From Saprospiraceae bacterium (GTDB lineage Bacteria > Bacteroidota > Bacteroidia > Chitinophagales > Saprospiraceae), in NCBI GenBank assembly GCA_022842725.1, contig JALHOZ010000003.1:1-64000 (forward strand): a stretch of DNA of 64,000 nucleotides, written 5' to 3'. The notes beneath the pieces were generated by a model. That model worked only from the letters and a program-made list of their open reading frames with translations. It ran no database searches and was not told the DNA's origin. The number at the start of each line of letters is the position of its first letter. Position 1 is the first letter of the stretch. A program made the position numbers and the translations under genes. Below are positions 17,878-32,547 of this stretch, one piece after another.

Positions 17878-19173
17878 CTAATCTACCTCCTTTCTTTTCA
17901 TCACGGGGATGTTTTTTACCACCATTTGAATGGTTTTGTGCAGCCGTTCTTCCATCAATACCAAACGATTGTGTTTCATGGCTTGCAGGGTTTCGTCATT
18001 ATAATGGCGAATGGTGATGAGCTCGAGGTCTTCATCCGTCACACAGCGGAAGTCGGAACCCAATTCGGTTTCAAACAATTTGATTTTGTCCGGAAAATAA
18101 TTGGTACAGATAGAAAAACTGATGGCGGTATTGCGCATCATATTGACTTTGATCCGGTGTTTGTCTAGGAGGGCAAAAATACTGCTGAGGTGATGTTCGG
18201 CGACAAAAGAAAAGTCATTGGAAGATATGTGGAGCAGGCATTGATTGGGTTCGATGACGATGACCGGCGGATAACTCAGCTCCATCACATCACTGATGAG
18301 GGTGCCTTCACTTTCGGGATCGTCAAACGGTCTTACGTAGAGGGGAATGTTTTTGTTTTGTAAAGGTTTGATGGTCTTCGGATGGATGACTTTGGCACCG
18401 TAATAAGTCATCTCTATGGCTTCTTTGTAAGAAAGCCGGGGCAGCTTCAGTACATCTTCAAACAATCGCGGGTCGGCTGTGAGTACACCGGGTACATCTT
18501 TCCAGATATGCATACTTTTGGCATCCAGGCAGTAGGAGAGTATGGCTGCGGTATAGTCAGAACCTTCTCTGCCGAGGGTGGTCGTAAAATTTTCGCTGCT
18601 GCTGCCGATAAATCCCTGGGTGATGATGATTTTTCCCTGTTCGATCAGGGGCATCATCTTTTGTACCGTCTTTTTTTGGGTTTGGTCCCAGAGGATGCGG
18701 GCATCCCGGTAGGTATTGTCCGTATGGATACAATCTCTGGCATCTACCCAGACGGCGGGCAATCCGATAGAGATCAGGTAGGCGGCCATGATTTTTGTGG
18801 AGAGTATTTCGCCGATGGAGACGATCTGGTCATAGTAGTAGTCAAAAGATTCTTCCGGCTTTTCTTCTATGATCCAGTCTATTTCGACCAGGGTATCGTT
18901 GATTTCTGTCAGGATGTCGCTGGCGTTCGGGATGAGTGATGAGGCGATATCTTCGTGTTGTTTCTGCAGTTTTTGGAGTAAATCCCGGGTATTTCCTTTG
19001 CCGGTATACCAGGATTTGACGATATCTTCGAGGGCGTTGGTGGTTTTGCCGAGGGCGGAGATGACGACCACGGGGTTTTCGTGTTGAAACCTGCGGATGA
19101 TGTTGGCTACATTTTCAAAACCTGTTTTGTCTTTGACGGATGCCCCGCCGAACTTAAAAACTTTATGATCCAT
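17878..19173 (-). CDS. Aspartate kinase (monofunctional)
   Basis: A 431-residue enzyme phosphorylating aspartate, the first step toward lysine, threonine and methionine. The N-terminal KFGGASV, the central TTLGREGSDYTAAIL, and IWKDVPGVLTADPR are diagnostic of the kinase domain; the C-terminal 130 residues form the ACT regulatory region. There is no fused homoserine dehydrogenase. The frame is open 57 codons further upstream, but the ATG at 19173 gives the family N-terminus MDHKVFKFGG and lies 21 bases after a TATCTTTG box. Several paralogous aspartokinases occur in this phylum, so I do not assign lysC or thrA. The 5' half appears richer in G and C than neighbours. Confidence 0.93.
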   Translation of the reverse strand: MDHKVFKFGGASVKDKTGFENVANIIRRFQHENPVVVISALGKTTNALEDIVKSWYTGKGNTRDLLQKLQKQHEDIASSLIPNASDILTEINDTLVEIDWIIEEKPEESFDYYYDQIVSIGEILSTKIMAAYLISIGLPAVWVDARDCIHTDNTYRDARILWDQTQKKTVQKMMPLIEQGKIIITQGFIGSSSENFTTTLGREGSDYTAAILSYCLDAKSMHIWKDVPGVLTADPRLFEDVLKLPRLSYKEAIEMTYYGAKVIHPKTIKPLQNKNIPLYVRPFDDPESEGTLISDVMELSYPPVIVIEPNQCLLHISSNDFSFVAEHHLSSIFALLDKHRIKVNMMRNTAISFSICTNYFPDKIKLFETELGSDFRCVTDEDLELITIRHYNDETLQAMKHNRLVLMEERLHKTIQMVVKNIPVMKRKEVD

Positions 19174-19194
19174 GGTATAATGCTTCTGAAGGCA

Positions 19195-19202
19195 CAAAGA
19201 TA
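19195..19202 (-). promoter_or_regulatory. Putative -7 promoter box TATCTTTG
   Basis: Exact TAnnTTTG match on the minus strand, 21 bases before the chosen aspartate kinase start at 19173; it supports that start over the upstream one. Confidence 0.5.
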
Positions 19203-19453
19203 CATTACCCGTAAAGAAGAATAAAGTTTTGGGTGGGATTAAGTTTGGGGAGATGTCGAAAAGAGGAGTATAAACTTCAAAAAATAATTTCTTTTTGATA
19301 CTATCCCTCTTGGCACCATCTTGAATCAGAGTTTGAATTATCAAGTCTAATGAGCACGTAAGAAACCCCTATTAAAACCAAAAACTGAGTTAAAAATCAA
19401 CAACAGATTGATGTATTCAATTTTGTCATAAATCTCTGATTAGAAATTCTTTT

Positions 19454-20254
19454 TTAGTTACAACACGGCTGCATGTTATATAATTCCAATACTTCAGCTT
19501 CGTTGAGTTCTTTATTCAAAATTATGACATCATCTATAAAACCAGTATAATATTTTCCTAAAACTATATCTCCGATGTTTCTTGAATTATATCCACATTG
19601 AGCGTCGCCTGAAGCAATTTCCTGTAATTTACCATTAATATAAATAGCAATTTTTTTATTGTTGAAGGTAAACACAGCATGCTTCCAGACATTACTGTTG
19701 TATGCATGAAAAAAGCCATCACATAATAGTGAATCGGGGATTGGATCCGGGATTGGATCCAGGATTGAATCCAAATTGATTTTATTTTCCCATACAGAAT
19801 TTCTATTTACTGCAGCTACTGCTTTTCGGCAATCATACAAACCTAATGACCATTCACCATATTTGTCCGGACATTCAAACTGATCGTATTTTGTCCTTGA
19901 TATGAGGACCTCATATTCTTCAAAAGCGTCTTCTGCCATATACCACAATGAAACAGAAAAAGAATTATTCTGAAGATTGTTCGTAAAGTCTCCGTTTACA
20001 TACAAAATTTGATTGAATGTGTGATCAAATCGGGCAGCACAAAAGTGGTTTTCTTGTCTGTCTTTTCCAAACTGAACACCGTTTTTATTTTTCAGGTTGC
20101 CTTGCTTTCCACTTTGATCCTGAAGGCTTCCCTTTGAAAAACTATAATAGGCAATAACAGAACGATCTAAGTTGTCCGGGATACAATCAATGGCAACTTC
20201 TTTAGAACACGATAAAAAAACCATTAAAAAAAATATTACACAACTGTGTTTCAT
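19454..20254 (-). CDS. LamG/concanavalin-A-like domain lipoprotein
   Basis: A 266-residue lipoprotein (lipobox VFLSCSK, Cys near residue 16) with a single LamG_3-type domain: AYYSFSKGSLQDQSG, NSFSVSLWYMAEDAF, WKHAVFTFNNKKIAIYINGK and the closing GFIDDVIILNKELNEAEVLELY, which is the typical end of bacterial LamG domains. Such domains bind carbohydrate or protein ligands on the cell surface; the ligand is unknown. In the middle, an Ile-Pro-Asp-Pro tract is encoded by three 12-base tandem units (19737-19772), an insertion within the domain. The gene is isolated and opens the repeat-containing accessory region. Confidence 0.78.
   Translation of the reverse strand: MKHSCVIFFLMVFLSCSKEVAIDCIPDNLDRSVIAYYSFSKGSLQDQSGKQGNLKNKNGVQFGKDRQENHFCAARFDHTFNQILYVNGDFTNNLQNNSFSVSLWYMAEDAFEEYEVLISRTKYDQFECPDKYGEWSLGLYDCRKAVAAVNRNSVWENKINLDSILDPIPDPIPDSLLCDGFFHAYNSNVWKHAVFTFNNKKIAIYINGKLQEIASGDAQCGYNSRNIGDIVLGKYYTGFIDDVIILNKELNEAEVLELYNMQPCCN
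19737..19772. repeat. Tandem repeat, 3 x 12 bases, inside a CDS
   Basis: Three consecutive units GGGATTGGATCC, GGGATTGGATCC and AGGATTGAATCC. Read on the minus strand they encode Asp-Ser-Ile-Leu-Asp-Pro-Ile-Pro-Asp-Pro-Ile-Pro. In-frame unit length means copy-number change would keep the gene open. Confidence 0.9.
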
Positions 20255-20700
20255 ATTACATATTTAAGTGAAAATACTAAGCCGTATGAAAAAAAATCTT
20301 TCTTCTATTCTCCCGGAAATAGCATGAAAAAAGTACGTATAATTGGAAATTGCCATCCAATTGAAAATATTAGAATAATAAAGAAACATTACTTATTGGC
20401 ATTTAATATCTGTCTTTCACAATCAAACTGAATATTATCTTTTATATTGTTCCATTAAATTGTAAATTATTATTTTTTTTGGGATGATGACTTAACTGAT
20501 AGACTGTTGAGCTTGGATACCATTGAGTTTATGATACTGCCAGTAATTTTGATTTTCATTCTGATAGCTAACAGTATTTTAACCTATATAATCGTAACCG
20601 AACTATTTAAAACACTATTAACGGTTACAAACGGAAACGTTTTCTTCCTGTTGTTTGGTTTCGGTAAAAACGAATTATACATTTTTTCATGTATTAGTTC

Positions 20701-20715
20701 GCAGTTACAAACTGC
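20701..20715 (+). repeat. REP-like hairpin copy A (GCAGT-TACAA-ACTGC)
   Basis: Perfect 5-base stem around the loop TACAA. Same design as the hairpins at 20764, 23128, 23184 and 27896, but with different, compensating stem bases. Confidence 0.55.
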
Positions 20716-20760
20716 CTCTAGATCGTGGTAATCTGTTGAATGGCTTTTTTGGTGATATGG

Positions 20761-20791
20761 GCACAAGTAGCAAACTTGCGTCAGCAAGGGG
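20761..20791 (+). repeat. REP-like hairpin copy B
   Basis: CAAGT-AGCAA-ACTTG (20764-20778) followed by the tail CGTCAGCAAGGGG. The tail matches the CGCCGGCAAGG tail of copy D at all but two positions. Confidence 0.6.
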
Positions 20792-20912
20792 AATCAGGGT
20801 AACATGCTAAAAAATACCTTCATAGGGCTTATGTATACGGTGCGGCTTAAAGCCAGAAGTTCCGGCTCTTTACCTAAAAAGTAAATTTAACATAGTTTTC
20901 TCCCGGAACCAA

Positions 20913-20949
20913 CAAATCATCCAAATGAATTTGGATGTCCGAAGAAGCC
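20913..20949. repeat. Palindromic intergenic repeat, copy 1
   Basis: Core ATCCAAATGAATTTGGAT, a palindrome, followed by GTCCGAAGAAGCC. It matches 20913-20949 to 30702-30738 with four differences in 37 bases by eye. Confidence 0.7.
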
Positions 20950-20997
20950 AAAAAAAGGTGGTATGTTTTATGTGCGATTTTTAACTCATCCTTTCAG

Positions 20998-21032
20998 ATG
21001 TCTCGTCATGTTTTTGAGACACGACGAGACAT
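20998..21032. repeat. Inverted repeat ATGTCTCGTC/GACGAGACAT
   Basis: Perfect 10-base arms separated by 15 bases, 81 bases after the stop of the minus-strand lipoprotein gene. No T-tract follows the stem on either strand, so it is not a normal terminator. Confidence 0.6.
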
Positions 21033-21112
21033 AAAAGTTAAAAAAAAGACAAAATTATTTATTACAAATTTTTAATGAAGATTCCGGATAACTATGCCAA
21101 CCCTGCTTATTG

Positions 21113-22297
21113 TCAAAATGAAACGATACGAATGAGGTCACTACTCCCTACATCACCATAATCATAGTCATATAACACTTTTTTGTCAAAATCAAATATG
21201 GCTTTATACGTTGTGGTAACTTGTTTTACAAAACAATTGGTGCTGAGATCAAGAAACAAAATGGAACTTCCGTCTTCGTAGATCATTTGATTGCCTTTTG
21301 CATCATAGTCCAACCAATCGGCATTTCCTCTTACCGGTATGTTAAAACTTCGGATGACGTTTTTGGTACGGAGATCCGTTATGCTGCCAGTAGGTCTGAT
21401 TACATAAGGCAGTTTTATGTGATGTTTGTCTGAAAACTTGTTAACCTCTCCCGTTAGACAGTTGATTACATATTTCAAAGAAAGATTGGATTCGAATGAA
21501 AACGTATGTAACACAAAATAAGGTTGGTAGGGATCATATTTTATAAGGGTGCTACTACTCTGAGAGACCTGGTCGATGATAAAAACGTGTTCTTCTTTTT
21601 GTTGATCAAGATTGAAGGAATAAACGACGAATTCATGATATACAGCATCGTTTGCGTACATGATCCAAAGGCACAAATCACCTGACTGGTTCCGGTACAT
21701 TTTCATAAAAGCTTCTTTCCATCCGTCTATTTCAGTATTTTTTATATCAAAAACGGATAATACCTCTTTGGCCTGGCCTGTAGGGATATGATAACTGATG
21801 ACATTAAACTTATTGGCGCTTTTGTTGGCAAAAAGGAAATACAAAGTATTTTCAAAATTAAAAATTTGTTTACAAGAAAAATAATTATTATTCATTTCTA
21901 CCGGAAGTGCAGAAACCGAACCTGTCAACAAATCCATGCTTTGTAAGATCCTTTCGCCATAGACATAAAAATAGATTTTATCGTCCACCAAAACAAATTC
22001 AGACATATTTCCGGTAAAAGGAAAATCCTTTAATGAATTGTCAGATTTATCCACAACCATGATGTGTTTTTGTTGTGAATTGTTTCGCTCATAACCCTGA
22101 TATACTAAATATCGATCGTTAGCCTGTGTGTGTTCTATAAAACAACGTAAAGGTACTGTTATTTCTTTATCAATGGATAATGTGAAAATCTCGCCGGCAC
22201 ACGGGTCGACATCTGAAAGATAATTGTCCTTGTCACAGGAAAAAAATAAAATGATTCCGGCAAGGATAAAAGTTTTAAAAATGGTTTGATTGTACAT
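21113..22297 (-). CDS. Hypothetical lipoprotein, possible beta-propeller
   Basis: A 394-residue lipoprotein (lipobox LFFSCDK, Cys near residue 21). The mature protein consists of repeated short units of the kind LVYQGYERNN, KIYFYVYGERILQSMDLLTG and TLYFLFANKSANKFNVISYH, which resembles a beta-propeller of about six or seven blades, but I recognise no family. It starts 27 bases after the stop of the upstream barrel-like gene, so the two form an operon. A surface-exposed partner of the barrel protein is one possible reading; nothing in the sequence proves it. Confidence 0.7.
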   Translation of the reverse strand: MYNQTIFKTFILAGIILFFSCDKDNYLSDVDPCAGEIFTLSIDKEITVPLRCFIEHTQANDRYLVYQGYERNNSQQKHIMVVDKSDNSLKDFPFTGNMSEFVLVDDKIYFYVYGERILQSMDLLTGSVSALPVEMNNNYFSCKQIFNFENTLYFLFANKSANKFNVISYHIPTGQAKEVLSVFDIKNTEIDGWKEAFMKMYRNQSGDLCLWIMYANDAVYHEFVVYSFNLDQQKEEHVFIIDQVSQSSSTLIKYDPYQPYFVLHTFSFESNLSLKYVINCLTGEVNKFSDKHHIKLPYVIRPTGSITDLRTKNVIRSFNIPVRGNADWLDYDAKGNQMIYEDGSSILFLDLSTNCFVKQVTTTYKAIFDFDKKVLYDYDYGDVGSSDLIRIVSF

Positions 22298-22324
22298 GAT
22301 AGTTTATTTAAGAAGTGAATAATA

Positions 22325-22984
22325 TTAAAATACAGTATAACGCAGACCCAACTGACCAAATAATGCAAAAAGATCATATTCCAAATATTCTTCTACTATC
22401 GTTTCTTTAAAATGATACCTGCCACCTGCCGATATGATGCAGTCCAAATTTTTTCTCACAGGCATATTAAATTCAAATTTCATCATCAAAAAATCATCTG
22501 TTTTTGTATGAAGTTTACGGCCTGACAGAATCGTTTCCGCTCCGTGAAAGTCATTGATCAAACTGCCATTTAACTCAGGTTTGTAAAAACAAAGGCCGTA
22601 ATGCATATAAAAAGAAGTATACTTATCAAGCTGATATGCCAACCCGGCTGCAAGTATCATTTTATCGATATCCACGGTCAGATGGTCTGTATCATAGTGC
22701 GAAAAATTAAAAGGAATTTTTAGTGATTCGTTTCCGTAACCCAGTAAAAGGCCGGCCCTGTATCTTTTATTTATTTGTTTTTCCAACTCAAAATAGGCCA
22801 TGGATCTGTCTGTGAATGTCCTTCTGTCATCATCGGAAAAGTCGGTTACAATATTACCTGCAAGAGGCGTAAAATCCATCAGAACTTTGACACTGACTCC
22901 CTGTTGCCCCGATAGAGGGTTGAAGTCAAAACATAAAAAGTAACCTACAAGTAAAATCAGAATTTTGTAATTCTTTGTTTTCAT
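22325..22984 (-). CDS. Putative outer-membrane beta-barrel protein
   Basis: About 219 residues from the ATG at 22984, chosen because it gives a clean signal peptide (cleavage near PLSGQ) and is preceded by a TATATTTG box; the open frame continues 31 codons upstream. The mature part has alternating beta-strand patterns (GLLLGYGNESLKI, ILAAGLAYQLDKY, FYMHYGLCFYKP) and ends in a C-terminal aromatic strand GQLGLRYTVF, the usual end of outer-membrane barrels. No specific family is recognised. It heads a two-gene operon with the lipoprotein at 21113-22297. Confidence 0.7.
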   Translation of the reverse strand: MKTKNYKILILLVGYFLCFDFNPLSGQQGVSVKVLMDFTPLAGNIVTDFSDDDRRTFTDRSMAYFELEKQINKRYRAGLLLGYGNESLKIPFNFSHYDTDHLTVDIDKMILAAGLAYQLDKYTSFYMHYGLCFYKPELNGSLINDFHGAETILSGRKLHTKTDDFLMMKFEFNMPVRKNLDCIISAGGRYHFKETIVEEYLEYDLFALFGQLGLRYTVF

Positions 22985-23023
22985 AACATTTGTTTTTTCA
23001 GTTAACAATAATAATTTATAGCA

Positions 23024-23031
23024 CAAATATA
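23024..23031 (-). promoter_or_regulatory. Putative -7 promoter box TATATTTG
   Basis: Exact TAnnTTTG match 39 bases before the ATG at 22984; it lies inside the longer open frame and therefore supports the shorter start. Confidence 0.45.
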
Positions 23032-23127
23032 ATGGCGAAAAATAATACCCGTCAAGAGGTAAAACAGATTTTAACATAATTTTAAATCCGGTACAATCAA
23101 AAGGGAGTTTTGTGTGTGATTAAAGGG

Positions 23128-23150
23128 ACGGGCTACAAACCCGTGTTGGC
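23128..23150 (+). repeat. REP-like hairpin copy C
   Basis: ACGGG (23128-23132) and CCCGT (23140-23144) flank a loop CTACAAA, followed by GTTGGC. Same loop core TACAA as the other copies, with a different stem. Confidence 0.5.
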
Positions 23151-23181
23151 GAAAAGGCCTAATTAGTTTCAGTATTGGAAA

Positions 23182-23212
23182 GGCACGAATTACAAACTAG
23201 CGCCGGCAAGGA
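23182..23212 (+). repeat. REP-like hairpin copy D
   Basis: GGCACGAAT-TACAA-ACTAGCGCC followed by GGCAAGG. The stem is partly mismatched; alignment with copy B covers the whole 29-base unit with about seven differences. Confidence 0.5.
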
Positions 23213-23350
23213 GTTATTTTTATACATCTTCTTGGCTTAACCTTGTATCTGATTCATTGCTGACTATTCCAACAGAAATTTAATGAATACGTCACACAAA
23301 AACAACTGATCCTACCTTCGTTCTACCTGCATCCATACCATAATCGACAC

Positions 23351-26300
23351 CTATATCTTAGACACTTTACAGGTATACCTATACTCTTTTGTTTTTATCT
23401 CGATCACATACAAACCTGGTCTTACATAGCCGAGATCAAGCGTGATGTCTGACGTATTTCCTGTTTCAGCAGAAATTAATCTGCCGTAGATGTCATATAA
23501 ACGAATCAGACAAGATTGTTGGGCTGTAAAATCTCCTTTGATGTCGACCGTGGCGTTTGTCGGATTGGGAACGGCAAAAATCGTGTGTTTGATGACATCT
23601 TTTGTTTTGTCCGGAAAGTCATACAGGGTAACTACTTTGTTTGTGATAATCGGTTCATTAAAATCAAAAAAGATAGCCGCTTCGTTTTGCAGGGTGTCTC
23701 CCAATTGTATCGTACTGTCAAGTGCCATGTCAAACTTCACAAAACCATTTGACCCGGGTTCATTGGTAAAACTATCCACCAGCTGAATATTCGGAAAATA
23801 GATTACAAGTTTTCTGCCGGGTTGGATCTCCCATTCAAATTCATGGGACGCCACCACAGGCCGAAGTGTATGGATATCAAAAACAGGACTGATGACATCC
23901 TCGATTCTGACATTAAAAGCGGTATCCGTCCCTGTATTTTGAAATCTGACCAGGTATTCTATTTTGTCCTCTTTACTTTGATATAAAACATCTTTATAAC
24001 CATTGACAAAAATAGCTTTGTCATTAGGATCAAAAGAACCCACATTTATTCTGCATTCTTTGCCATTATTTTTTGGTAACGGTTGGTCACAATCATTGTC
24101 CGCTTCAACAAATGCTGAGATACAATGTTCCTGCCCCAAATCGGCTTCACAACTCAGCTCAAATAAAAAATTAAATCTCAAATCTTCTCCTACTTCGAGA
24201 TCCGGAAGTTTTAATATCAACTCAGGATGTGTATAAGACACCACTTCGAGATCACTGGACTTAAAAATAAAAAAACTGTCCAAAGTGATATAAATGAATC
24301 CGTTTTCTACCGTTTCATTACCATTATTTTTAACATTCCCGTAATACCTATTATCAAAACATCTTCTCAACAAGGATGTACTCAATCCTAATGTAAGATC
24401 AGCACATTCCTGATACACTTTGACATGAAAAGTGATGGTGCTATCCGGGTGATAATCTTTTACCAAAATTTCCTTTTCGCATACTTCAGAAAAATTTCTG
24501 TTATAATTGAGTGAAAAGGTGGTAGCGTCCGTACTATAATACATATAGGCTTCTCCATGGATGTCCAGGGGTCTTTGACGTCCGTCACTTGACACTACCA
24601 CTCCGGTCATCGGTCTGGCTTCCCACGGATCTGCGGCACAATTAAAATTTTCATCCCTGAGCCCCCTGACTTTAATAAATTTTGATATGTCAGAATCAGG
24701 CACAACCGTTTTGAGAATACCTACGCCACTTGTAGCTACATAGATATAATGATCAAAACTGACAGAAATATCCGTCAGATATTCTATTCTGGCATCTTTT
24801 GGTGTGATATCCGGCCATGTCAAACCTTGATTAAATGAGGCCAATATTCTGTTACGAAACAAAATATACATATTTCCGTAATGGTCTACGGTAAATTTAC
24901 TAAAAATCAAAGTTCCCATATCATGAATAATGGTATCCGTGATAAATGTATTCCCTTCATCTGTTGATATATGGAAAATCAAAGCCCGTTTGTTTGTGGT
25001 ACCCACCGCTACATTTGTCAAAGCATAAATATTTTTGCCATCGTATGATGATTCCAAACCTAAAGCATTGACAAAAGGTAGTGATTTCGTGCTGTTGGTC
25101 GCAAGATCAAGGATCCGGTAACCAAAACTGCCTCTCTGTATTAATTTGTTGTTTCCGGTGGGAATACTCCGGGAAGTATTGGTATAATTAAAGCTTTTAG
25201 ACGACTTGATATTTACATAATCCTCAGAAGTATGAATTTTTCCTGATTCTATAATGTACAACTTATTGTTTTTTAGATAAACCTGACCGTTGTGTATATA
25301 ATTAAAATTACATAATGTTATATCATCAAAGGTTTCATTAATTATATAATTATTGTAGGGAACATTAAAAAATACTTTACCATTGGGCAAACCCAATTTT
25401 ATATATTGGCTGACATTGATGCCAAATCTCGTAGTGCCCTCCTGCCAGTCATCCTCAGCTTTTTTGTAGGTCAGATATCTTTCGCACTGATCCTCAGCTA
25501 TTACATTTCCATTGATTGCTGCGGTGACAGAAAAAGCATACGCTTTCTGCTGTATATTGCAGGCAATATCCTTCCAGGTGGTGCCTTGATCAAAAGAAAT
25601 CTGGTTCATTTTATTATCTGTACAATTTAAATACATTCTTATAAAATTTCCGGAACTATCACAAGTAACCCATGACCGGATATTGTCAAACAAAACCTTT
25701 GAAGTTTCTCCCTTATCCGTCGAATAAACATATTGAGCACCTTTCTGACTAAATATATATCCGTTTTTTCCTACATTAGAATTACCATCAAAAATGGAAA
25801 ATGCAGTCAATGTTTGCCATGTTTTTCCGCCGTCGTCTGAATATTTTCCATTCATAAGGAACCTGCCTTTAGCATAATGGAGCTTGGTAAAATAAGGAAA
25901 CTCAATTTTGTCACCTATAAATGTAAGACTGTCGGTAAATTCCTGAAAACCTGTGGCTGTCGACAGGCCTCCGATGTCAACATAATTTTTATGTCCTTTG
26001 GATAAGTATAAAAAGCCTCTGGTAATGGTGACTGTTTTTTTAAATTTTTCAGTTTTTGTCGTTGCATCCAATACCCGCATATCCTTTCTGGTCACGATGA
26101 TCAGATCTCCGTTGCTCAAAAAATCAAAGTCCGTAATTGAATTTGCATATCCATTGGTAAAATAAACCGAAATCTCATGGGTCAACTTATCAAACTTATA
26201 GATGATGTGATTGCTATAGGTAGAGGTGCCGGGACTTAAAAGTTTTTGCTCCTGACCTAAAAAATATATATTGTTGTCATTATCTTCTTTAAATACAGGA

Positions 26301-26557
26301 TCTGAAACGCTTGAAAATCCTACCGCAAGGCGATAAACAGGATAGTCGAGTTTTTCCCACGAATCACCGTAATTATAAGAAGCAAAATACTCCAACGTTC
26401 TTTTATCCTTATACAGCAATGTTCCGGCTTTGCTTATATAATCAAATTGCCGGTATGATGAATCAGGACTTGCCACCCTCTCCCATTGTATTTCACCCTG
26501 ACTGAAACAAACTAAATGGAAATGCAAAAGAAGAATAATGAATATTGAATTTTTCAT
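23351..26557 (-). CDS. Large secreted T9SS cargo with BNR-like repeats and DUF7619-like domain
   Basis: A 1068-residue protein with a signal peptide (cleavage near CFSQ). The first 600 residues are BNR/Asp-box-like propeller repeats (FASYNYGDSWEKLD, YSDDGGKTWQTL, SFDQGTTWKDIA, SFNQGLTWPDIT). After a Cys-containing middle part there is a conserved domain starting GSFDPNDKAIFVNG (about residue 860) with YLVRFQNTGTDTAFNVRIED and NEAAIFFDFNEPIITN, which I place with the DUF7619/DUF11-like repeat of Bacteroidota surface proteins. The end is a T9SS type-A sorting domain (VPNPTNATVDI to YRYTCKVSKI). It should be a secreted or surface-attached protein; function unknown. The gene is monocistronic. Confidence 0.82.
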   Translation of the reverse strand: MKNSIFIILLLHFHLVCFSQGEIQWERVASPDSSYRQFDYISKAGTLLYKDKRTLEYFASYNYGDSWEKLDYPVYRLAVGFSSVSDPVFKEDNDNNIYFLGQEQKLLSPGTSTYSNHIIYKFDKLTHEISVYFTNGYANSITDFDFLSNGDLIIVTRKDMRVLDATTKTEKFKKTVTITRGFLYLSKGHKNYVDIGGLSTATGFQEFTDSLTFIGDKIEFPYFTKLHYAKGRFLMNGKYSDDGGKTWQTLTAFSIFDGNSNVGKNGYIFSQKGAQYVYSTDKGETSKVLFDNIRSWVTCDSSGNFIRMYLNCTDNKMNQISFDQGTTWKDIACNIQQKAYAFSVTAAINGNVIAEDQCERYLTYKKAEDDWQEGTTRFGINVSQYIKLGLPNGKVFFNVPYNNYIINETFDDITLCNFNYIHNGQVYLKNNKLYIIESGKIHTSEDYVNIKSSKSFNYTNTSRSIPTGNNKLIQRGSFGYRILDLATNSTKSLPFVNALGLESSYDGKNIYALTNVAVGTTNKRALIFHISTDEGNTFITDTIIHDMGTLIFSKFTVDHYGNMYILFRNRILASFNQGLTWPDITPKDARIEYLTDISVSFDHYIYVATSGVGILKTVVPDSDISKFIKVRGLRDENFNCAADPWEARPMTGVVVSSDGRQRPLDIHGEAYMYYSTDATTFSLNYNRNFSEVCEKEILVKDYHPDSTITFHVKVYQECADLTLGLSTSLLRRCFDNRYYGNVKNNGNETVENGFIYITLDSFFIFKSSDLEVVSYTHPELILKLPDLEVGEDLRFNFLFELSCEADLGQEHCISAFVEADNDCDQPLPKNNGKECRINVGSFDPNDKAIFVNGYKDVLYQSKEDKIEYLVRFQNTGTDTAFNVRIEDVISPVFDIHTLRPVVASHEFEWEIQPGRKLVIYFPNIQLVDSFTNEPGSNGFVKFDMALDSTIQLGDTLQNEAAIFFDFNEPIITNKVVTLYDFPDKTKDVIKHTIFAVPNPTNATVDIKGDFTAQQSCLIRLYDIYGRLISAETGNTSDITLDLGYVRPGLYVIEIKTKEYRYTCKVSKI

Positions 26558-26581
26558 AAACTGAAAAGTTGTTTAACATCG

Positions 26582-26589
26582 CAAATATA
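26582..26589 (-). promoter_or_regulatory. Putative -7 promoter box TATATTTG
   Basis: Exact TAnnTTTG match on the minus strand 24 bases before the start of the 1068-residue T9SS cargo gene. Confidence 0.45.
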
Positions 26590-26875
26590 AGGTACACCAT
26601 GTTGCAAATCATGTCAAATTTAAACAACATTTTATACAACGAGTCAAATCTACCGTAAAAACTCAGAATTTAGGGTTTAAAAGGTGAAAATCTTTGGTGA
26701 TCATGACTCCGGGTGACTCTGTTTTGACCTCGCGCTGGCGTAGAGCTGTATACGGTGCTCTAAAATCATCAAAGCCAACAACTTTTGATTTTTTATGTTT
26801 ATCTGGTAGACTAATAATTACAAATTCTTAAGGTTTAGCATAGCAGTGACAACCTGTGACGATGAGGGTAGGGTG

Positions 26876-26917
26876 TTTTTCAGTGATGCGCAAGAAATGC
26901 TACACATCACTGAAAAA
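26876..26917. repeat. Inverted repeat TTTTTCAGTGATG/CATCACTGAAAAA
   Basis: Perfect 13-base arms around a 16-base loop, 38 bases beyond the stop of the minus-strand gene at 26955. The T-run precedes the stem instead of following it on both strands, so a classical intrinsic terminator is not formed. Confidence 0.65.
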
Positions 26918-26954
26918 ATGAGCACCAAAATGAATAGAGGTTTATTTAACATGC

Positions 26955-27701
26955 TCAATCACATTCAAAACTCTTAATTTTTTTTTTATAAAAACCAGCA
27001 TTCTCATGAAACATGTAGTTGTTTTTTGTGGAATCAAATTTCATTCCATCATAATACTTAACATGTTGGTGGCCAAACATTTCATAGTGCCATTCTAAAA
27101 AGTTCTCAAATTTGATAAACCCATTATTTTTACACTTCCTAAACTGAAAACCTAATTTTAACTTTTCGATTTCTTTAAATTTGTCAAAATACTCACTATA
27201 CTCCAAAAATATAAAATACAAGTCTCCTACACTAACAATGTCTGATATGGTAAAAACACATTTGTACTTCGAAGTAGCACTTAGTTGATGTTCATTGGTT
27301 TGATTAGACTCATCTACAAAATGAGCTGACATCTGCGTACTGTTGCAAATATTTAAAACGTCAATTTTGTTTTTTATAAATTTTATCGACGGGTTGTCCA
27401 TACTATCAACAACATACTTCATGTTCTCGTGTAAAATGGAGTCATTCATCTTTTGATACAATATAAAACTCTTGTTTTTATCAAACTTTAACTCCGTAAA
27501 AAATTCTGCATCAAAAATCATATCATTACTCTCCATGATATAAGATAAGGCCTTATTATTGATATAGCACAATTCTTGTGTTGTAAAATCTAAGCTTGAT
27601 TTTGGCTCAAGAATTTTTTGGTTTTGTTTTGTACATCCAAGGCATAATATTATAGCAATTATTATTACACTTTTAAAACAAATAAAGGATCTATAAATCA
27701 T
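26955..27701 (-). CDS. Hypothetical lipoprotein, AT-rich
   Basis: About 248 residues from the ATG at 27701, chosen because it gives a compact lipoprotein signal (MIYRSFICFK then a hydrophobic run and lipobox LCLGCTK); the frame also opens 15 codons earlier at 27746, where the ATG overlaps the stop of a 66-codon frame. The mature part is rich in Lys, Asn, Phe and Tyr and the gene is visibly more AT-rich than its neighbours. No family is recognised. It sits alone among repeats and gene remnants, which fits an acquired or fast-evolving gene. Confidence 0.65.
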   Translation of the reverse strand: MIYRSFICFKSVIIIAIILCLGCTKQNQKILEPKSSLDFTTQELCYINNKALSYIMESNDMIFDAEFFTELKFDKNKSFILYQKMNDSILHENMKYVVDSMDNPSIKFIKNKIDVLNICNSTQMSAHFVDESNQTNEHQLSATSKYKCVFTISDIVSVGDLYFIFLEYSEYFDKFKEIEKLKLGFQFRKCKNNGFIKFENFLEWHYEMFGHQHVKYYDGMKFDSTKNNYMFHENAGFYKKKIKSFECD

Positions 27702-27735
27702 ACTTGAAATATTATTATGGACAAGCAACAAAATT

Positions 27736-27936
27736 TTATGAAACATTTGCTGGGTTTAATATAAAACTATTATACACAGCCATTTTATTGTTAATATCTA
27801 TTTGTGTATAATTAGTATATTGAAGAAGATCTTGTCCAAATCCTCTAAGTACCAATCCTTCAAAATCACTAAAAGTACCGATTTCCCTGCTCCCGCAAGT
27901 TTGTAACTTGTGTATCAAAAAAAAATTGCCCATCAT
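27736..27936 (-). pseudogene. Possible 3' remnant of a gene interrupted by a REP-like hairpin
   Basis: A 66-codon frame whose first third reads through REP-like copy E and whose last 45 codons (from TFSDFEGLVLRGFGQDLLQY onward) look like ordinary protein sequence. Its stop overlaps the upstream ATG of the AT-rich lipoprotein frame. It could be the tail of a lost gene that was once coupled to the lipoprotein. It could also be a chance frame; support is weak. Confidence 0.25.
27893..27912 (-). repeat. REP-like hairpin copy E
   Basis: On the minus strand ACACAAGT-TACAA-ACTTGCGGG: a perfect CAAGT/ACTTG stem (27896-27910) around TACAA, followed by an AGCAGGG tail. This is the best-conserved stem-loop of the set and the only full copy in minus orientation. 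Confidence 0.6.
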
Positions 27937-27972
27937 TAGTCCACATTTTATCCCCTTTTTTCAAAAAAAAAC

Positions 27973-30630
27973 CTACTTATTTATCATCAGCCCCTGATTT
28001 TCCAATATACTGCCGTCCAGGGCGACAATGTTGCGCACCTGGATGCCATTGATGTATATCCTGCCCTGATTCAGCAAAGAGCCGGAGAGGACGATGCCGT
28101 CCTGGTCAGCGTCAGTGATGTCGATGCGGCCATAGTTTTCTAATCTGCCCGTTATATTCCAACAAGAGATGCCGGCTTCCATACCGGAATGGATCATCAT
28201 ATGGGCACCGGCCTCCACGACACAGGTCGCGTCCTGGCCTATGGTCACACTTTTGACCGCCCGGTAGTCGGTGACGACGACGGTATCATCGGTGAGTATA
28301 TATACATGTTGGCAAGGCAGGGGTACCATGTTCTGCACCCAATTGGCAGGGTCTTCCCACGAGGTAGCGTCGCCGGCACCTGACCAATAGGCCGAAACGC
28401 CACTGTCCGCCACGCCGTCACAATCATTGTCCTCTCCGTCACAGATCTCTGCTGCGCCGCTGTACACCGAGGCATCATTGTCATCACAATCGAGATCACT
28501 ACACATACCGTCATCATCCACATCGATACCGGACGCCCCGATACAGGGACCACAGGTCACCGCAGAGGTCAGGGTCATAAATAATTCGTCAAAATAACTG
28601 TCATTGTCGCCGCCCGCCACGCGGGTACCTCTCATGATAAACTTAATCCTCCGGGTCAACGGTGGCACAGGGACCATGTTTTGGACGAGCAACCACTGCG
28701 GCTGATTGTTGCCGACAAAAGGAGCATTTACAACTTGTCCGTCAGCTTTCAGAAACTGTACGGATACCTCCGGAAAATCATTGTTGGTCGCCCAGGTCCG
28801 GAGGTAACCCCCGTAAAACACCTGCAAAGCACCGTTGTCAATATCTGTTGCGTAAGCCGACACATTGACGGTCTGATCTGCAAGTCCAAGATCCTGCTCA
28901 TTGGCACAGATGCCGCCGACACCAAAAAACCTCGTGCCGGCATAGACGGGTACAGAGTTGCATTGATTGGACGTAAGGGCTTCGACCTGTCCGTTCCATC
29001 CGGTGATGCCGTTTTCAGCATTTGCATTGGTCAAAAGATTGGGTGTGGTCGTCGCCTCGCGGGTGATAAAAGTTTTGGGTACGGACCAATCGCTCCACCT
29101 CAGGTAATTGTCTCTGTACCGTACCCGCCAGTAATAGGTTTGATCGGGTGAGACGACGATTTGTTGTTCGTCGGTGAGGTCATCATTTGTCTGGGTGTCG
29201 ACATTCTGATAGAGGTTTTCGTGCTGACGCCAGCTGTCGTGGATGATGTTTGAAAAATTGATCTGGTCAGAGATCTGCCATTGGCTTGCCTGATGAAAAT
29301 TGTTGGGATCAAAAAATGCCGAAGCTTTGAGGGTCACACAATTGTAGTCGACAGAATCATCGGGCCATACACCGTAGGGTTGTGCCGGAGGAAAGTCAAA
29401 CATTTTGAGTATCACAGAATCGGTCACTTCATTGTTTTTCATCAGCGCATCATCACCCCGCGAATATCGTTTGACAAAAACTTCCGGGTCGGGTCCGGCC
29501 TGTCCTTTGAGCAGCACAAAACCGTATTCGTCTTCGCTGTGGGTAAACTCTTCATAATCGTGGTTGGGAAACTGGCCCCAATAGTCCAAAGCCCCGCCGG
29601 CAGAAGCGACATTGATCCAGAGATGGTCGTGGTATTTGGACTGCCCTCTCGAATATCCGTGGGTATGACCAAAGAGGTGAATGGTGGGTTTCTGACAGTT
29701 TTGGGTAAAATTTTCCATCGCTGTCACGACCTGACCCGTAAAATTGGACTCACCGGGTGTCCACATCTCACTTTTGTAGGGAGCGTGGAGTTGGACAAAT
29801 ACAAAGTCGATGACCGGATCGGTACAAACGCCATTGAGGGTATTGTTGAGCCAGGTGAGCTGAAGGTTTTGTTCTGTGGTATTGGAATTGGAATTGAGGG
29901 CGATCACGCGGATATTGGAAAAATCTTTGTACCACCATTGTTCCGGAAAATTTGTATGACCGTTGAGTGGAAGATCAAAATATTTGAGATAGTTTTGAAG
30001 GCCGTTGGAGTAATATTCGTGATTGCCGACGGAAGGATACATGGGTACGATGGTCGTCATGTTTTCACCGAGGTCAAAAAAATCATTTTTCCACTGGCTG
30101 TAGGTACCGCCACTTTGCACCAGGTCACCGGGAGCGATGATGCCGTGCAGATCATCCATGCCGTTCTCTAGTTCCTGATTCATTACCGGAATGATGCCCT
30201 GATTGACCAGATTGGTGTAGACATTGGGATAAGCAGAAGTTCGTTGAATATCGGAGATGGAGACAAAATTGATGTTTTGTTCTTTGTGGGTTTCATCCAA
30301 AGTCAGGAAGTGATAGACGGAAGATTGTACATTATTGCCCAAAACCACTTTGTAGTAATATTTTTTGAGGGGCGACAATCCGGTGATTTGCCCGGTAAAT
30401 ATCCGGCTTGTTCCGTTGCCCGTCTGCGAAAAAGCTTCTGTAGTCATGGTCAGATTGAAAGGACTGTCACCATAGTGGATAAAAGCCGTGGTGGTGGTGT
30501 TTGTTTCAAACATCATTTTGGCACTGGTCGTCGTGATATCCTGCAGGTAGGGTTTGACGATGATGGATTGGGCAGAAGAAACCATCACAAAAAAAGAAGC
30601 CAAACCCACTAAAATCAACCGGTAAATCAT
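27973..30630 (-). CDS. Secreted purple-acid-phosphatase-like metallophosphatase with MopE-type motif
   Basis: An 885-residue protein with signal peptide (cleavage near SSAQ). Domains: N-terminal fibronectin-III-like domain (about 25-115), calcineurin-like metallophosphatase of the purple acid phosphatase type with GDLVQSGG, VGNHEYYSN, QLHAPYKS and FGHTHGYSRGQ (about 120-390), a second Fn3-like region (WQISDQINFS to YYWRVRYRDNYLRWSDW), a carbohydrate-binding-like region, and a MopE-type Asp/Cys motif DLDCDDNDASVYSGAAEICD with EDNDCDG. The C-terminal 130 residues are beta-rich and end LENQGLMINK with no T9SS type-A sorting motif. It probably hydrolyses phosphoesters outside the cytoplasm. Base composition is clearly richer in G and C than the flanking genes. 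Confidence 0.82.
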   Translation of the reverse strand: MIYRLILVGLASFFVMVSSAQSIIVKPYLQDITTTSAKMMFETNTTTTAFIHYGDSPFNLTMTTEAFSQTGNGTSRIFTGQITGLSPLKKYYYKVVLGNNVQSSVYHFLTLDETHKEQNINFVSISDIQRTSAYPNVYTNLVNQGIIPVMNQELENGMDDLHGIIAPGDLVQSGGTYSQWKNDFFDLGENMTTIVPMYPSVGNHEYYSNGLQNYLKYFDLPLNGHTNFPEQWWYKDFSNIRVIALNSNSNTTEQNLQLTWLNNTLNGVCTDPVIDFVFVQLHAPYKSEMWTPGESNFTGQVVTAMENFTQNCQKPTIHLFGHTHGYSRGQSKYHDHLWINVASAGGALDYWGQFPNHDYEEFTHSEDEYGFVLLKGQAGPDPEVFVKRYSRGDDALMKNNEVTDSVILKMFDFPPAQPYGVWPDDSVDYNCVTLKASAFFDPNNFHQASQWQISDQINFSNIIHDSWRQHENLYQNVDTQTNDDLTDEQQIVVSPDQTYYWRVRYRDNYLRWSDWSVPKTFITREATTTPNLLTNANAENGITGWNGQVEALTSNQCNSVPVYAGTRFFGVGGICANEQDLGLADQTVNVSAYATDIDNGALQVFYGGYLRTWATNNDFPEVSVQFLKADGQVVNAPFVGNNQPQWLLVQNMVPVPPLTRRIKFIMRGTRVAGGDNDSYFDELFMTLTSAVTCGPCIGASGIDVDDDGMCSDLDCDDNDASVYSGAAEICDGEDNDCDGVADSGVSAYWSGAGDATSWEDPANWVQNMVPLPCQHVYILTDDTVVVTDYRAVKSVTIGQDATCVVEAGAHMMIHSGMEAGISCWNITGRLENYGRIDITDADQDGIVLSGSLLNQGRIYINGIQVRNIVALDGSILENQGLMINK

Positions 30631-30649
30631 GTTATCAGGTATTTGATGG

Positions 30650-30657
30650 CAAATATA
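30650..30657 (-). promoter_or_regulatory. Putative -7 promoter box TATATTTG
   Basis: Exact TAnnTTTG match on the minus strand, 19 bases before the start of the metallophosphatase gene at 30630. Confidence 0.5.
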
Positions 30658-30701
30658 GACTTTCTGTGGTATATCTTGAAGTAAGATTGGTACAGATAAT
30701 A

Positions 30702-30738
30702 CAAATCATCCAAATAAATTTGGATGTCCGGGGAAGTC
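30702..30738. repeat. Palindromic intergenic repeat, copy 2
   Basis: Core ATCCAAATAAATTTGGAT followed by GTCCGGGGAAGTC. The counterpart is at 20913-20949, same orientation, about 9.8 kb away. Confidence 0.7.
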
Positions 30739-30996
30739 CCGATGATGGAAGGTTGCAACTGCGATATGGAGAATTAATATTTTTTAATTCGTTCTTACGA
30801 TATTAAAAAAAAATTGTAGGCCAGCTCATGAAATTAAGAGTTTTACTCCTTTTGCCTCAAGCCGGCAAGGCTTTTACTTTTTTTGTAATTGGTTGACCTC
30901 CCTAATCTCTTCATAAAAATATTAGTACCCGCAACGGCTCAAGGGAAAAACTCTTAAGCTTTTTGGTTGTTTGCCTATTATTGAAAATATTTCCTC

Positions 30997-32547
30997 ATGA
31001 TCTTTGCCATCGACGATACCTTTACAAAAGAACTTCCTGCTGATCCGATCACCATAAATCAGGTGAGACAGGTGGCTGATTGTTGTTATTCGTACGTTGA
31101 CCCGACGCCCTGTGTCGCGCCATCGATGATCCATGTTTCTCCTGATATGATGGACAAACTGGGCATTACGGCGGAGGATACAAAAGATCCCTCATTTGTA
31201 AAGCTGATGTCCGGTAATGAAGTTCCGCAAGGTTGTTTTCCGTATGCTATGTGTTATGGTGGTCATCAGTTTGGTTCCTGGGCCGGCCAATTGGGTGACG
31301 GCAGGGCCATCAACCTGTTTGAAACGGTGGTCAATGGCCGACGTTGGGCTCTTCAGCTCAAAGGGGCAGGATTGACGCCGTATTCCAGATCGGCTGACGG
31401 ACTGGCGGTGTTGAGGAGTTCGGTGAGAGAATACCTCTGCAGTGAAGCCATGTATTTTTTGGGTGTGCCGACGACCAGAGCCTTGTCCCTGGTGCAAACG
31501 GGTGATATGGTATTGCGCGATGTGATGTATGACGGCCATCCTGCTTACGAAAAAGGAGCCATCGTATGTCGGGTAGCTCCTACGTTCATCCGGTTTGGCA
31601 ATTTTCAGATTCTGGCAGCCCGGGGTGAGACCAAAAATCTTAAGGCACTGACGGATTATACCCTGAAACACTTTTTTCCGGAATTGGGTCCTCCATCAAA
31701 AGAAACCTACATCCGCTTTTTCGAAAGTGTTGCACAAAAGACCATCGACATGATCGTGCACTGGCAACGGGTGGGATTTGTCCACGGCGTGATGAATACC
31801 GACAATATGTCCATCCTTGGCCTCACGATAGACTACGGACCGTACGGATGGTTGGAAAATTACGATCCCGGATGGACGCCCAATACAACGGATGCCCACG
31901 GAAAAAGGTATCGTTTCGGCAATCAGCCGGCGATCTCTTCGTGGAATCTGTATCAATTGGCCAATGCTTTGTATCCTTTGATTGAAGAAGCAAAACCATT
32001 GGAAGACATCATCCATAGTCTGCAGGACAGATATGAATCAGCTTATCGCGAAATGATGAAAAAGAAGCTTGGATTCACCACATCATTTGACGAAGAAAAA
32101 GGGTTGATCGCCTCTTTGGAAGAGTTGTTGCACAGCAGTGAGATGGACATGACCCTGTTTTTCCGGACGTTGAGTGATTTTGACAAAGGAAACGATACCA
32201 CTTTTGTGGAAAAGTTGTCCGGAATGTCTTATTCCAAATCATTTGACCAGTTTATCCCTGCGTGGAAAGAATGGTTGGACAGGTATAACCAATTGTTGTT
32301 GTTACATGCTGATCCGCATAAAAAAGCCTTAATGGATTCGGTCAATCCCAAATATGTATTGCGCAATTATATGGCACAAATTGCCATTGACGCCGCCGAC
32401 AAAGGCGACTATTCCTTCATCGAAGAATTTTATACCCTGCTGCAAAAACCCTATGATGAGCAACCGGAATACCAAAGGTGGTTTGCCCTCAGACCCGAGT
32501 GGGCAGAACATAAAATCGGTTGTTCGATGTTGAGTTGTAGTTCGTAG
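30997..32547 (+). CDS. selO: SelO/YdiU protein adenylyltransferase
   Basis: A 516-residue pseudokinase-fold protein of the UPF0061/SelO family, which transfers AMP to Ser, Thr or Tyr of target proteins. Family motifs are in place: GGHQFGSWAGQLGDGRA (about 88-104), LQLKGAGLTPYSRSADG (Lys122, Arg131), SSVREYLCSEAM (Glu145), and the catalytic-loop equivalent FVHGVMNTDNMSILG followed by IDYGP (Asp279). The C-terminus GCSMLSCSS retains the conserved Cys that is selenocysteine in animals; here it is encoded by an ordinary TGT codon. Role in redox stress is known for the family. The gene is monocistronic and converges on the TolC gene. Confidence 0.94.
   Translation: MIFAIDDTFTKELPADPITINQVRQVADCCYSYVDPTPCVAPSMIHVSPDMMDKLGITAEDTKDPSFVKLMSGNEVPQGCFPYAMCYGGHQFGSWAGQLGDGRAINLFETVVNGRRWALQLKGAGLTPYSRSADGLAVLRSSVREYLCSEAMYFLGVPTTRALSLVQTGDMVLRDVMYDGHPAYEKGAIVCRVAPTFIRFGNFQILAARGETKNLKALTDYTLKHFFPELGPPSKETYIRFFESVAQKTIDMIVHWQRVGFVHGVMNTDNMSILGLTIDYGPYGWLENYDPGWTPNTTDAHGKRYRFGNQPAISSWNLYQLANALYPLIEEAKPLEDIIHSLQDRYESAYREMMKKKLGFTTSFDEEKGLIASLEELLHSSEMDMTLFFRTLSDFDKGNDTTFVEKLSGMSYSKSFDQFIPAWKEWLDRYNQLLLLHADPHKKALMDSVNPKYVLRNYMAQIAIDAADKGDYSFIEEFYTLLQKPYDEQPEYQRWFALRPEWAEHKIGCSMLSCSS

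What the first reader, a model, noticed from the sequence alone, without database searches (positions are those of the whole stretch)
20701..27912. Family of REP-like hairpins with a constant TACAA loop and changing stems
At least five small hairpins occur in the accessory gaps: 20701 (GCAGT/ACTGC), 20764 (CAAGT/ACTTG, loop AGCAA), 23128 (ACGGG/CCCGT), 23184 (degenerate) and 27896 (CAAGT/ACTTG, minus strand). The loop stays TACAA(A) while stem bases change with compensation, and several share a tail like CGCCGGCAAGG. A tail fragment also lies at 30861 and a degenerate one near 26740. Compensated stems suggest that structure matters. REP elements mobilised by REP-associated tyrosine transposases behave this way; no such gene is in the window.
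Basis: partly seen in the sequence, partly recalled or inferred. Interest (0 to 1): 0.55.

Follow-up and report, generated by a model that had tools for sequence, protein, structure and literature searches.

The report
REP hairpins of a Bacteroidota transposase
These small DNA hairpins are scattered copies of a transposase-linked repeat that occurs across the Bacteroidota; their stems differ from place to place while their loop stays the same, and one copy sits exactly where a gene has been cut short.

Summary
The five hairpins are real. They are REP elements of the kind tied to REP-associated tyrosine transposases (RAYTs). The main hairpin is GGC-A-CNNGT | TRCAA | ACNNG-C-GCC + AGC: a nine-position stem with one constant A.C mismatch and a near-constant loop. 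A covariance model finds 36 copies at E<=1e-3 in the 4.6-Mb genome; 116 of 119 other family genomes sampled have none. An exact pattern hit its 120-locus limit, almost all Bacteroidota; at its two free stem positions 253 of 266 cells pair. No RAYT was found in the assembly. A RAYT of a same-genus genome lies between inverted copies; RAYTs of other lineages carry the hairpin on one or both sides. The loop recurs with different stems at 21 of 71 RAYT loci, against 2 of 71 for the loop read backwards. Often a second hairpin lies 5' of the first. The copy at 27884-27920 sits at a truncation junction. 'Atypical' Bacteroidetes REP hairpins are in print (PMC6006769); the signature, two-hairpin layout and junction are what I add. 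The sites at 26740 and 30861 are not members.

The parts
20697..20719 (+). 5' hairpin (A) of two-hairpin unit 1: GTTCGCAGT|TACAA|ACTGCCTCT
   Evidence: Read; scans; weak model match 20702-20714 E 0.1; unit 20672-20786 aligns (65% over 115 columns, E 3e-5) to another two-hairpin unit on contig C52
20754..20790 (+). main hairpin (B) of unit 1 with tail: GGCACAAGT|AGCAA|ACTTGCGTC AGCAAGG
   Evidence: Model R1 46.4 bits, E 3.3e-12
23128..23144 (+). 5' hairpin (A) of unit 2: ACGGG CTACAAA CCCGT
   Evidence: Read; DNA fold -4.4 kcal/mol, z -1.1; not found by R1 on this strand
23176..23212 (+). main hairpin (B) of unit 2, inner stem decayed, foot GGC/GCC and tail kept
   Evidence: Model R1 42.9 bits, E 4.1e-11; does not fold better than shuffles
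27884..27920 (-). main hairpin (B) of a single copy, at a gene-truncation junction
   Evidence: Model R1 43 bits, E 3.7e-11; homology to the same-genus locus stops at 27887
27736..27887 (-). remaining C-terminal fragment (about 46 codons) of a gene whose 593-aa homologue is intact in a same-genus genome
26955..27746 (-). intact 263-aa lipoprotein-like gene directly 3' of the fragment; its homologue (254 aa) follows the intact 593-aa gene in the same-genus genome
   Evidence: no Pfam match

Best explanation
The hairpins are non-autonomous REP elements mobilised in trans by RAYT (TnpA-REP) enzymes of the Bacteroidetes class (subclass 2.6 / Bertels group 5 by motif). The enzyme probably reads the hairpin as single-stranded DNA through its near-constant loop TRCAA (an RCA triloop closed by T-A) and the constant A.C mismatch, while the inner stem drifts as long as it stays paired. 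Cleavage is inferred at the 3' end, just after the tail that begins AGC. In the window genome the copies are relics, or are fed by a RAYT that the assembly lacks. Shown: family, copy number, stem compensation, RAYT genes flanked by the hairpin. Inferred: recognition by loop and mismatch, cleavage at the tail, mobility.
For: 36 copies at E<=1e-3 in G000; 52 in same-genus G180, which has RAYTs; 0 in same-genus G047, whose best RAYT-model match is only E 2.3e-7. RAYT L280 has GGCACAAGTTGCAAACTTGCGCCAGCAAGGG on one side and GGCACAAGTTACAAACTTGCGCCAGCATGG on the other, inverted; L255 (same family) and L212 likewise. RAYT identity: NF047646 REP_Tyr_transpos at 99.7-111.1 bits over a cut-off of 80 for three proteins. 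Loop at RAYT loci: 21 of 71 against 2 of 71 backwards; triloops GCA and ACA each in 9 of 30 family loci against 0.4 and 0.3 in shuffles. Stem compensation 253 of 266 cells. 29 of the 30 best own copies lie outside ORFs of >=90 aa.
Against: No RAYT found in the own assembly (best E 1.39). 50 of 60 RAYT-model loci show no hairpin with the GGCAC/GCGCC foot, so most RAYTs use other palindromes. In the class-wide sample only 3 of 30 loci have the TACAA/TGCAA loop. Orientation at RAYTs is not uniform: L198 and L229 have flanking copies in direct orientation, and in L237 the upstream copies point towards the gene. No insertion with an exact empty site was seen; no biochemistry.
Confidence: 0.86

Rival explanations
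1. The hairpins are RNA elements (terminators or mRNA stabilisers) kept for a host function; the RAYT link is secondary.
For: Intergenic position of 29 of the 30 best own copies; REPs elsewhere have such roles (PMC6006769, passages).
Against: No run of T follows the main hairpins read; no Rfam match reaches its gathering score in window 19000-32000; very patchy distribution even within the genus (52, 36 and 0 copies); orientation to genes is mixed.
Confidence: 0.06
2. The mobiliser is the IS200-like TnpA present in the genome (two genes) rather than a RAYT.
For: Two Y1_Tnp genes are present.
Against: Neither has the hairpin in its 17-20 kb stretch; each is surrounded by its own GCCCTTTCAGGGC-type palindromes. 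Of the 21 high-scoring Y1_Tnp loci fetched only L214 carries the hairpin, about 1 kb or more from the gene.
Confidence: 0.04
3. Recombination sites of a cassette system (integron-like, or toxin/immunity shuffling) rather than REPs.
For: On contig C38 three copies each precede an open frame and a small co-oriented gene beside a PT-HINT/EndoU toxin gene; the window copy sits at a junction.
Against: Most copies are not in such arrays: in 19 of 27 scorable own copies the gene on the 3' side runs towards the hairpin. RAYT genes are flanked by the same hairpin. attC features were compared from memory only; no test was run.
Confidence: 0.04

Closest known systems
TnpA-REP (RAYT) subclass 2.6 / Bertels group 5 and its 'atypical secondary structures' in Bacteroidetes (PMC6006769; passages and sections 12-13 seen)
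   Same: Phylum; protein length about 175-197 aa for the full-length ones against a median of 179; motifs [NS]H[AILV]H, W[QR], Y[ILV]HxNP in alignment A3 against NH[LIV]H, WQ, YIH[QN]NP in its Table 1; GTAG rare outside Pontibacter; copies elsewhere in the genome
   Different: [quoted passage not shown] here one loop, foot and tail recur across the phylum. Its Table S1 could not be read, so single members may be listed there.
Canonical GTAG REPs and BIMEs/REPINs (PMC3733652 abstract and passages; PMC2817692 passages)
   Same: Short, mainly intergenic imperfect palindromes in many copies, often in dimers; RAYT gene between inverted copies at some loci
   Different: GTAG at the foot of 0 of 23 own copies and 2 of 81 non-Pontibacter copies, but 22 of 52 Pontibacter copies; close pairs here are mostly direct, not inverted
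CGTC REPs (PMC3733652, passages)
   Same: 8-9 bp stems, 4-5 nt loops, short unpaired tail
   Different: No CGTC tag seen by eye in alignment A1; that family is reported without RAYT genes flanked by it

Membership tests
REP element associated with RAYT (atypical, subclass 2.6) | short imperfect palindrome in many, mostly intergenic copies | tested here: met
   36 copies at E<=1e-3 in G000; 29 of the 30 best outside ORFs of >=90 aa
REP element associated with RAYT (atypical, subclass 2.6) | the same palindrome flanks a RAYT gene | tested here: met
   L280 same genus, L255 same family, L212, L198, L197, L228, L234, L237; not in the own genome, where no RAYT was found
REP element associated with RAYT (atypical, subclass 2.6) | flanking copies in inverted orientation | tested here: inconclusive
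   inverted at L280, L255 and L212; direct at L198 and L229
REP element associated with RAYT (atypical, subclass 2.6) | RAYT is of subclass 2.6 | tested here: inconclusive
   NF047646 matches and motifs in A2/A3 close to those of Table 1; no tree was built
Canonical GTAG REP superfamily | GTAG tetranucleotide at the 5' foot | tested here: not met
   0 of 23 own copies; 2 of 81 outside Pontibacter, 22 of 52 in Pontibacter
BIME/REPIN | unit made of two REPs in inverted orientation | tested here: not met
   within 80 nt, TRCAA-loop partners: 5' same strand 40, 5' opposite strand 11, 3' same strand 5, 3' opposite strand 1 of 129
RAYT-mobilised element | binding and cleavage by the cognate enzyme | not testable with these tools
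   needs biochemistry
IS200/IS605 insertion sequence end | hairpin flanks an IS200-type TnpA | tested here: not met
   0 of 21 high-scoring Y1_Tnp loci have it within 900 bp; both own IS200-like genes negative

The most novel reading that the evidence does not exclude
A whole RAYT clade reads its DNA targets mainly by one loop (T-RCA-A), so the stems are free to drift. The hairpin works as a one-ended transposon terminus with a fixed 3' end and a variable 5' side. Such events drag along neighbouring DNA, cut genes at the tail and help to build orphan toxin-tail/immunity arrays. (Lowered from 0.17 on checking: flanking copies in L198, L229 and L237 do not all point outwards.)
Probability: 0.14. 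Interest if true: 0.7.

Novelty: new variant of a known kind. Interest (0 to 1): 0.45.

Why it matters
The Bacteroidetes RAYT class was in print with only manually found 'atypical' hairpins. A loop, foot and tail signature makes these REPs searchable by machine across the phylum. It also gives a clean test of how a RAYT tells its target without the GTAG tag: by loop and mismatch rather than by stem. The truncation junction in the window, and the 3'-fixed homology in two genomes, suggest which end is cut.

Tried and rejected
Degenerate copy at 26740: not found at E<=5 with filters off. IS200-like TnpA as mobiliser: rejected. Rfam: nothing over a gathering score in window 19000-32000 or in the seven Pontibacter loci scanned; in L022, L023 and L027 only an SRP RNA and DUF805b RNA, unrelated. 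Integron attC: considered from memory only and dropped. Coding function: 1 of 30 own copies lies in an ORF of >=90 aa.

Results against the reading: within alignment A1 the number of pairs with a two-sided change (3) is reached by 56 of 500 shuffles and the further pair types by 336 of 500; only cells paired, two-sided cells and covariation score exceed all shuffles. The fixed 3' end of homology is clear in the own genome (58 pairs, quartiles 30-39) and in Pontibacter mucosus (227 pairs, 26-33) but not in G180, where tandem arrays blur it (54 pairs, 30-97); pairs share ancestry and are not independent. By the automatic rule only 5 of 30 own copies have an upstream hairpin; the distances around 22 nt are mostly the Pontibacter layout. 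Triloops GAA and GCA are raised at IS200-like loci too (5 and 3 of 23 against 0.3 and 0.35). The alternative fold of 20754-20790 and the poor fold of 23176-23212. Flanking copies at RAYTs are direct in L198 and L229. The G022 and G110 matches (26.7 and 26.5 bits) were read and look unconvincing. The 261-kb sample was taken around known copies and is biased towards them.

Rows dropped: one search lists 24 copies, of which 23 were aligned (one with a 3-nt insert left out). One search lists 134 matches; one search used 133 and one search used 129 (copies too near a locus end left out). R1 searches scored only 56 to 150 candidates per genome, and over 40 genomes with stricter filters. The 71 RAYT-model loci include 7 below the family's cut-off and several repeats of the same place (for example L212/L219, L199/L217, L223/L248/L277). 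Searches used the 30 own copies that had loci, not all 46 matches.
Full report
WHAT IS THERE. The window is contig C3:1-64000 of a 4.6-Mb, 87-contig genome. Its genus also holds G180, which by identical RAYT places and E-values is the assembly reached as G123; locus L088, titled 'Aureispira sp. CCB-QB1 isolate MiH-14oct19-171', lies in G123. The five hairpins of the finding are in the sequence. The window holds three main (B) hairpins (20754-20790 +, 23176-23212 +, 27884-27920 -; E 3.3e-12 to 4.1e-11) and two 5' partner (A) hairpins (20697-20719 and 23128-23144, +).

MORE THAN CHANCE. The pattern TACAAACNNGCGCCNGCNAGG with <=3 mismatches has 16 hits in the genome against 1 for the pattern read backwards. 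The covariance model R1 finds 46 matches at E<=1, 36 of them at E<=1e-3; of 120 family genomes 4 have any at E<=1e-3, the own one included. In about 261 kb of this genome, taken around known copies, the most frequent five-base loop over five-pair stems is TACAA (12 seen, 3.7 expected in a first-order model). On alignment A1, 90.8% of cells pair against 83.0% (sd 1.4) in shuffles; 9 of the 12 two-sided changes are one A-T to C-G change at the second inner pair, and the number of pairs with such a change is not exceptional. Within the own genome, then, compensation rests mainly on one pair.

DISTRIBUTION AND COMPENSATION. Its free stem positions pair in 253 of 266 cells (95.5% and 94.7% against 52% and 37% under independence), with stems CGAGT/ACTCG 35, CGGGT/ACCCG 29, CAAGT/ACTTG 25, CGCGT/ACGCG 19 and rarer ones. 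Copies within a genus are related, so these are not independent events, but stem classes recur in different lineages. The loop was TGCAA in 76 and TACAA in 54 of 134, although its first two bases were free in the pattern.

THE ENZYME. Two Y1 transposase genes were found in the own genome; both are IS200-like and have their own GCCCTTTCAGGGC-type palindromes, not this hairpin. A profile of 12 RAYTs finds nothing in the own genome (best E 1.39), which is 95.5% complete. In the same genus, G180 has 52 hairpins at E<=1e-3 and RAYTs; G047 has no hairpin and RAYT-model matches no better than E 2.3e-7. The RAYT on G123 contig C56 (L280) has the hairpin on both sides with the tails outwards. So have the RAYTs of L255 (same family) and L212. 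L198 and L229 have it on both sides in direct orientation, and L197, L228, L234 and L237 on at least one side. Three of these proteins were scanned and match NF047646 REP_Tyr_transpos; the alignments show motifs and lengths close to those PMC6006769 gives for subclass 2.6 (Table 1 passage). That paper says this class is mostly in Bacteroidetes, lacks GT[AG]G and is flanked by 'atypical secondary structures' found by hand (section 12).

LOOP KEPT, STEM FREE. At RAYT-model loci the loop NRCAA over stems of at least six pairs occurs in 21 of 71, the loop read backwards in 2 of 71; at IS200-like loci in 2 and 0 of 23. The stems there differ from each other: CTTTCGGAT, CTGTTTTAAGT, CTCAGC, TCGAAGT, GCCGAAGT, CGCCAGT and more, though several share an innermost AGT/ACT. 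Counting triloops without regard to strand, GCA and ACA each occur in 9 of 30 family loci (0.4 and 0.3 in shuffles) and AGA, GAA, GGA in 7, 7 and 5: all are purine-N-A. In the class-wide sample the loops TACAA/TGCAA are in 3 of 30 loci, while ACA and GCA triloops are in 6 each, so the loop is common but not universal. My inference is that the enzyme reads loop and mismatch rather than stem; passages of PMC8266576 report that other RAYTs and IS200 transposases use loop and mismatch contacts.

TWO HAIRPINS AND A FIXED END. Of 129 core hairpins 40 have a second TRCAA hairpin within 80 nt on the 5' side, same strand; 5 have one on the 3' side, and 0.2 are expected from shuffles. Most of the 40 sit at the Pontibacter spacing of about 22 nt. 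Window unit 1 aligns over both hairpins to a unit on contig C52. When two copies are aligned, the shared sequence ends near the tail (3' quartiles 30-39 in the own genome, 26-33 in Pontibacter mucosus; core length 23), while the 5' side ranges from 0 to 382 and from 1 to 770 nt. In G180 tandem arrays blur the 3' limit. Together with the outward tails at L280, L255 and L212 this suggests that the tail is the outer end; the direct copies at L198 and L229 do not fit so simply.

THE JUNCTION. Window 27051-27887 is 86% identical to G180 C45:4395-5228, while the other long matches of that search are 66-72%. In G180 the DNA continues as an intact 593-aa gene, and a 254-aa gene follows that gene. In the window the second gene is whole, but of the first only about 46 C-terminal codons remain, and homology stops at 27887, where the hairpin tail begins. 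A run of shared C/G bases leaves the exact point open by a few bases. On contig C38 three hairpins each stand before an open frame and a small co-oriented gene, downstream of a PT-HINT/EndoU toxin gene. Whether the REP caused the truncation or settled at an older break is not shown.

LITERATURE. Searches: 'REP-associated tyrosine transposase' + Bacteroidetes, 'repetitive extragenic palindromic' + RAYT, palindromic + Pontibacter, RAYT/Bacteroidetes/REPIN, REPIN/RAYT/group 5/domesticated, polymorphic toxin + extragenic palindromic, RAYT with flavobacterial, saprospiral or cytophagal names. None of the listings or passages seen showed a TRCAA-loop REP family or a REP link to toxin/immunity junctions. 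The one listing (PMC10210955) was not opened; supplementary tables and subscription papers were not searched.

VERDICT.

Noticed in passing
window 30851-30887: A 37-bp repeat TTTTGCCTCAAGCCGGCAAGGCTTTTACTTTTTTTG has 97-100% copies at five places in G180 and a 93% partial copy in G047; not part of the hairpin family.
   Followed up: partly
L019 and L020 (G000 C8:15442, C2:244433): Both IS200-like genes carry a Y motif like that of TnpA subclass 1.2 (YITNQKEHH, YIANQHEHH; sequences), for which Table 1 of PMC6006769 gives no REP, yet both are surrounded by GCCCTTTCAGGGC/GCCCTGAAAGGGC palindromes.
   Followed up: no
Pontibacter loci, for example L162:2339-2784: A dispersed element of about 350 nt ends at its 3' side in the two-hairpin unit; many copies in P. 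mucosus and P. chinhatensis; no Rfam match over a gathering score in the seven loci scanned. Might be a passenger or a structured RNA.
   Followed up: partly
G180 C3:125072-125513 (L328): Tandem array of seven hairpin copies with a period of about 68 nt.
   Followed up: no
L023:13177-19175 (G000 C38): PT-HINT/EndoU polymorphic toxin gene followed by hairpin + open frame + small gene repeats, looking like orphan toxin-tail/immunity modules.
   Followed up: partly
window 20912-20947 and 30701-30736: Another repeated palindrome, CATCCAAATNAATTTGGATG, in two 92% identical copies of 36 nt.
   Followed up: no
L278 (G123 C152) and L277 (G123 C121): Two other RAYTs of the same-genus genome have their own unrelated palindromes; that of L278 is again a two-hairpin unit.
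   Followed up: no
L021:773 and L023:7870-7899, 19441-19470: A second two-hairpin family in the own genome (GACGAAT|TACAA|ATTCGTT then TCGAAGT|TACAA|ACTTCGA); its second stem equals that at a RAYT of another family member, L265.
   Followed up: no
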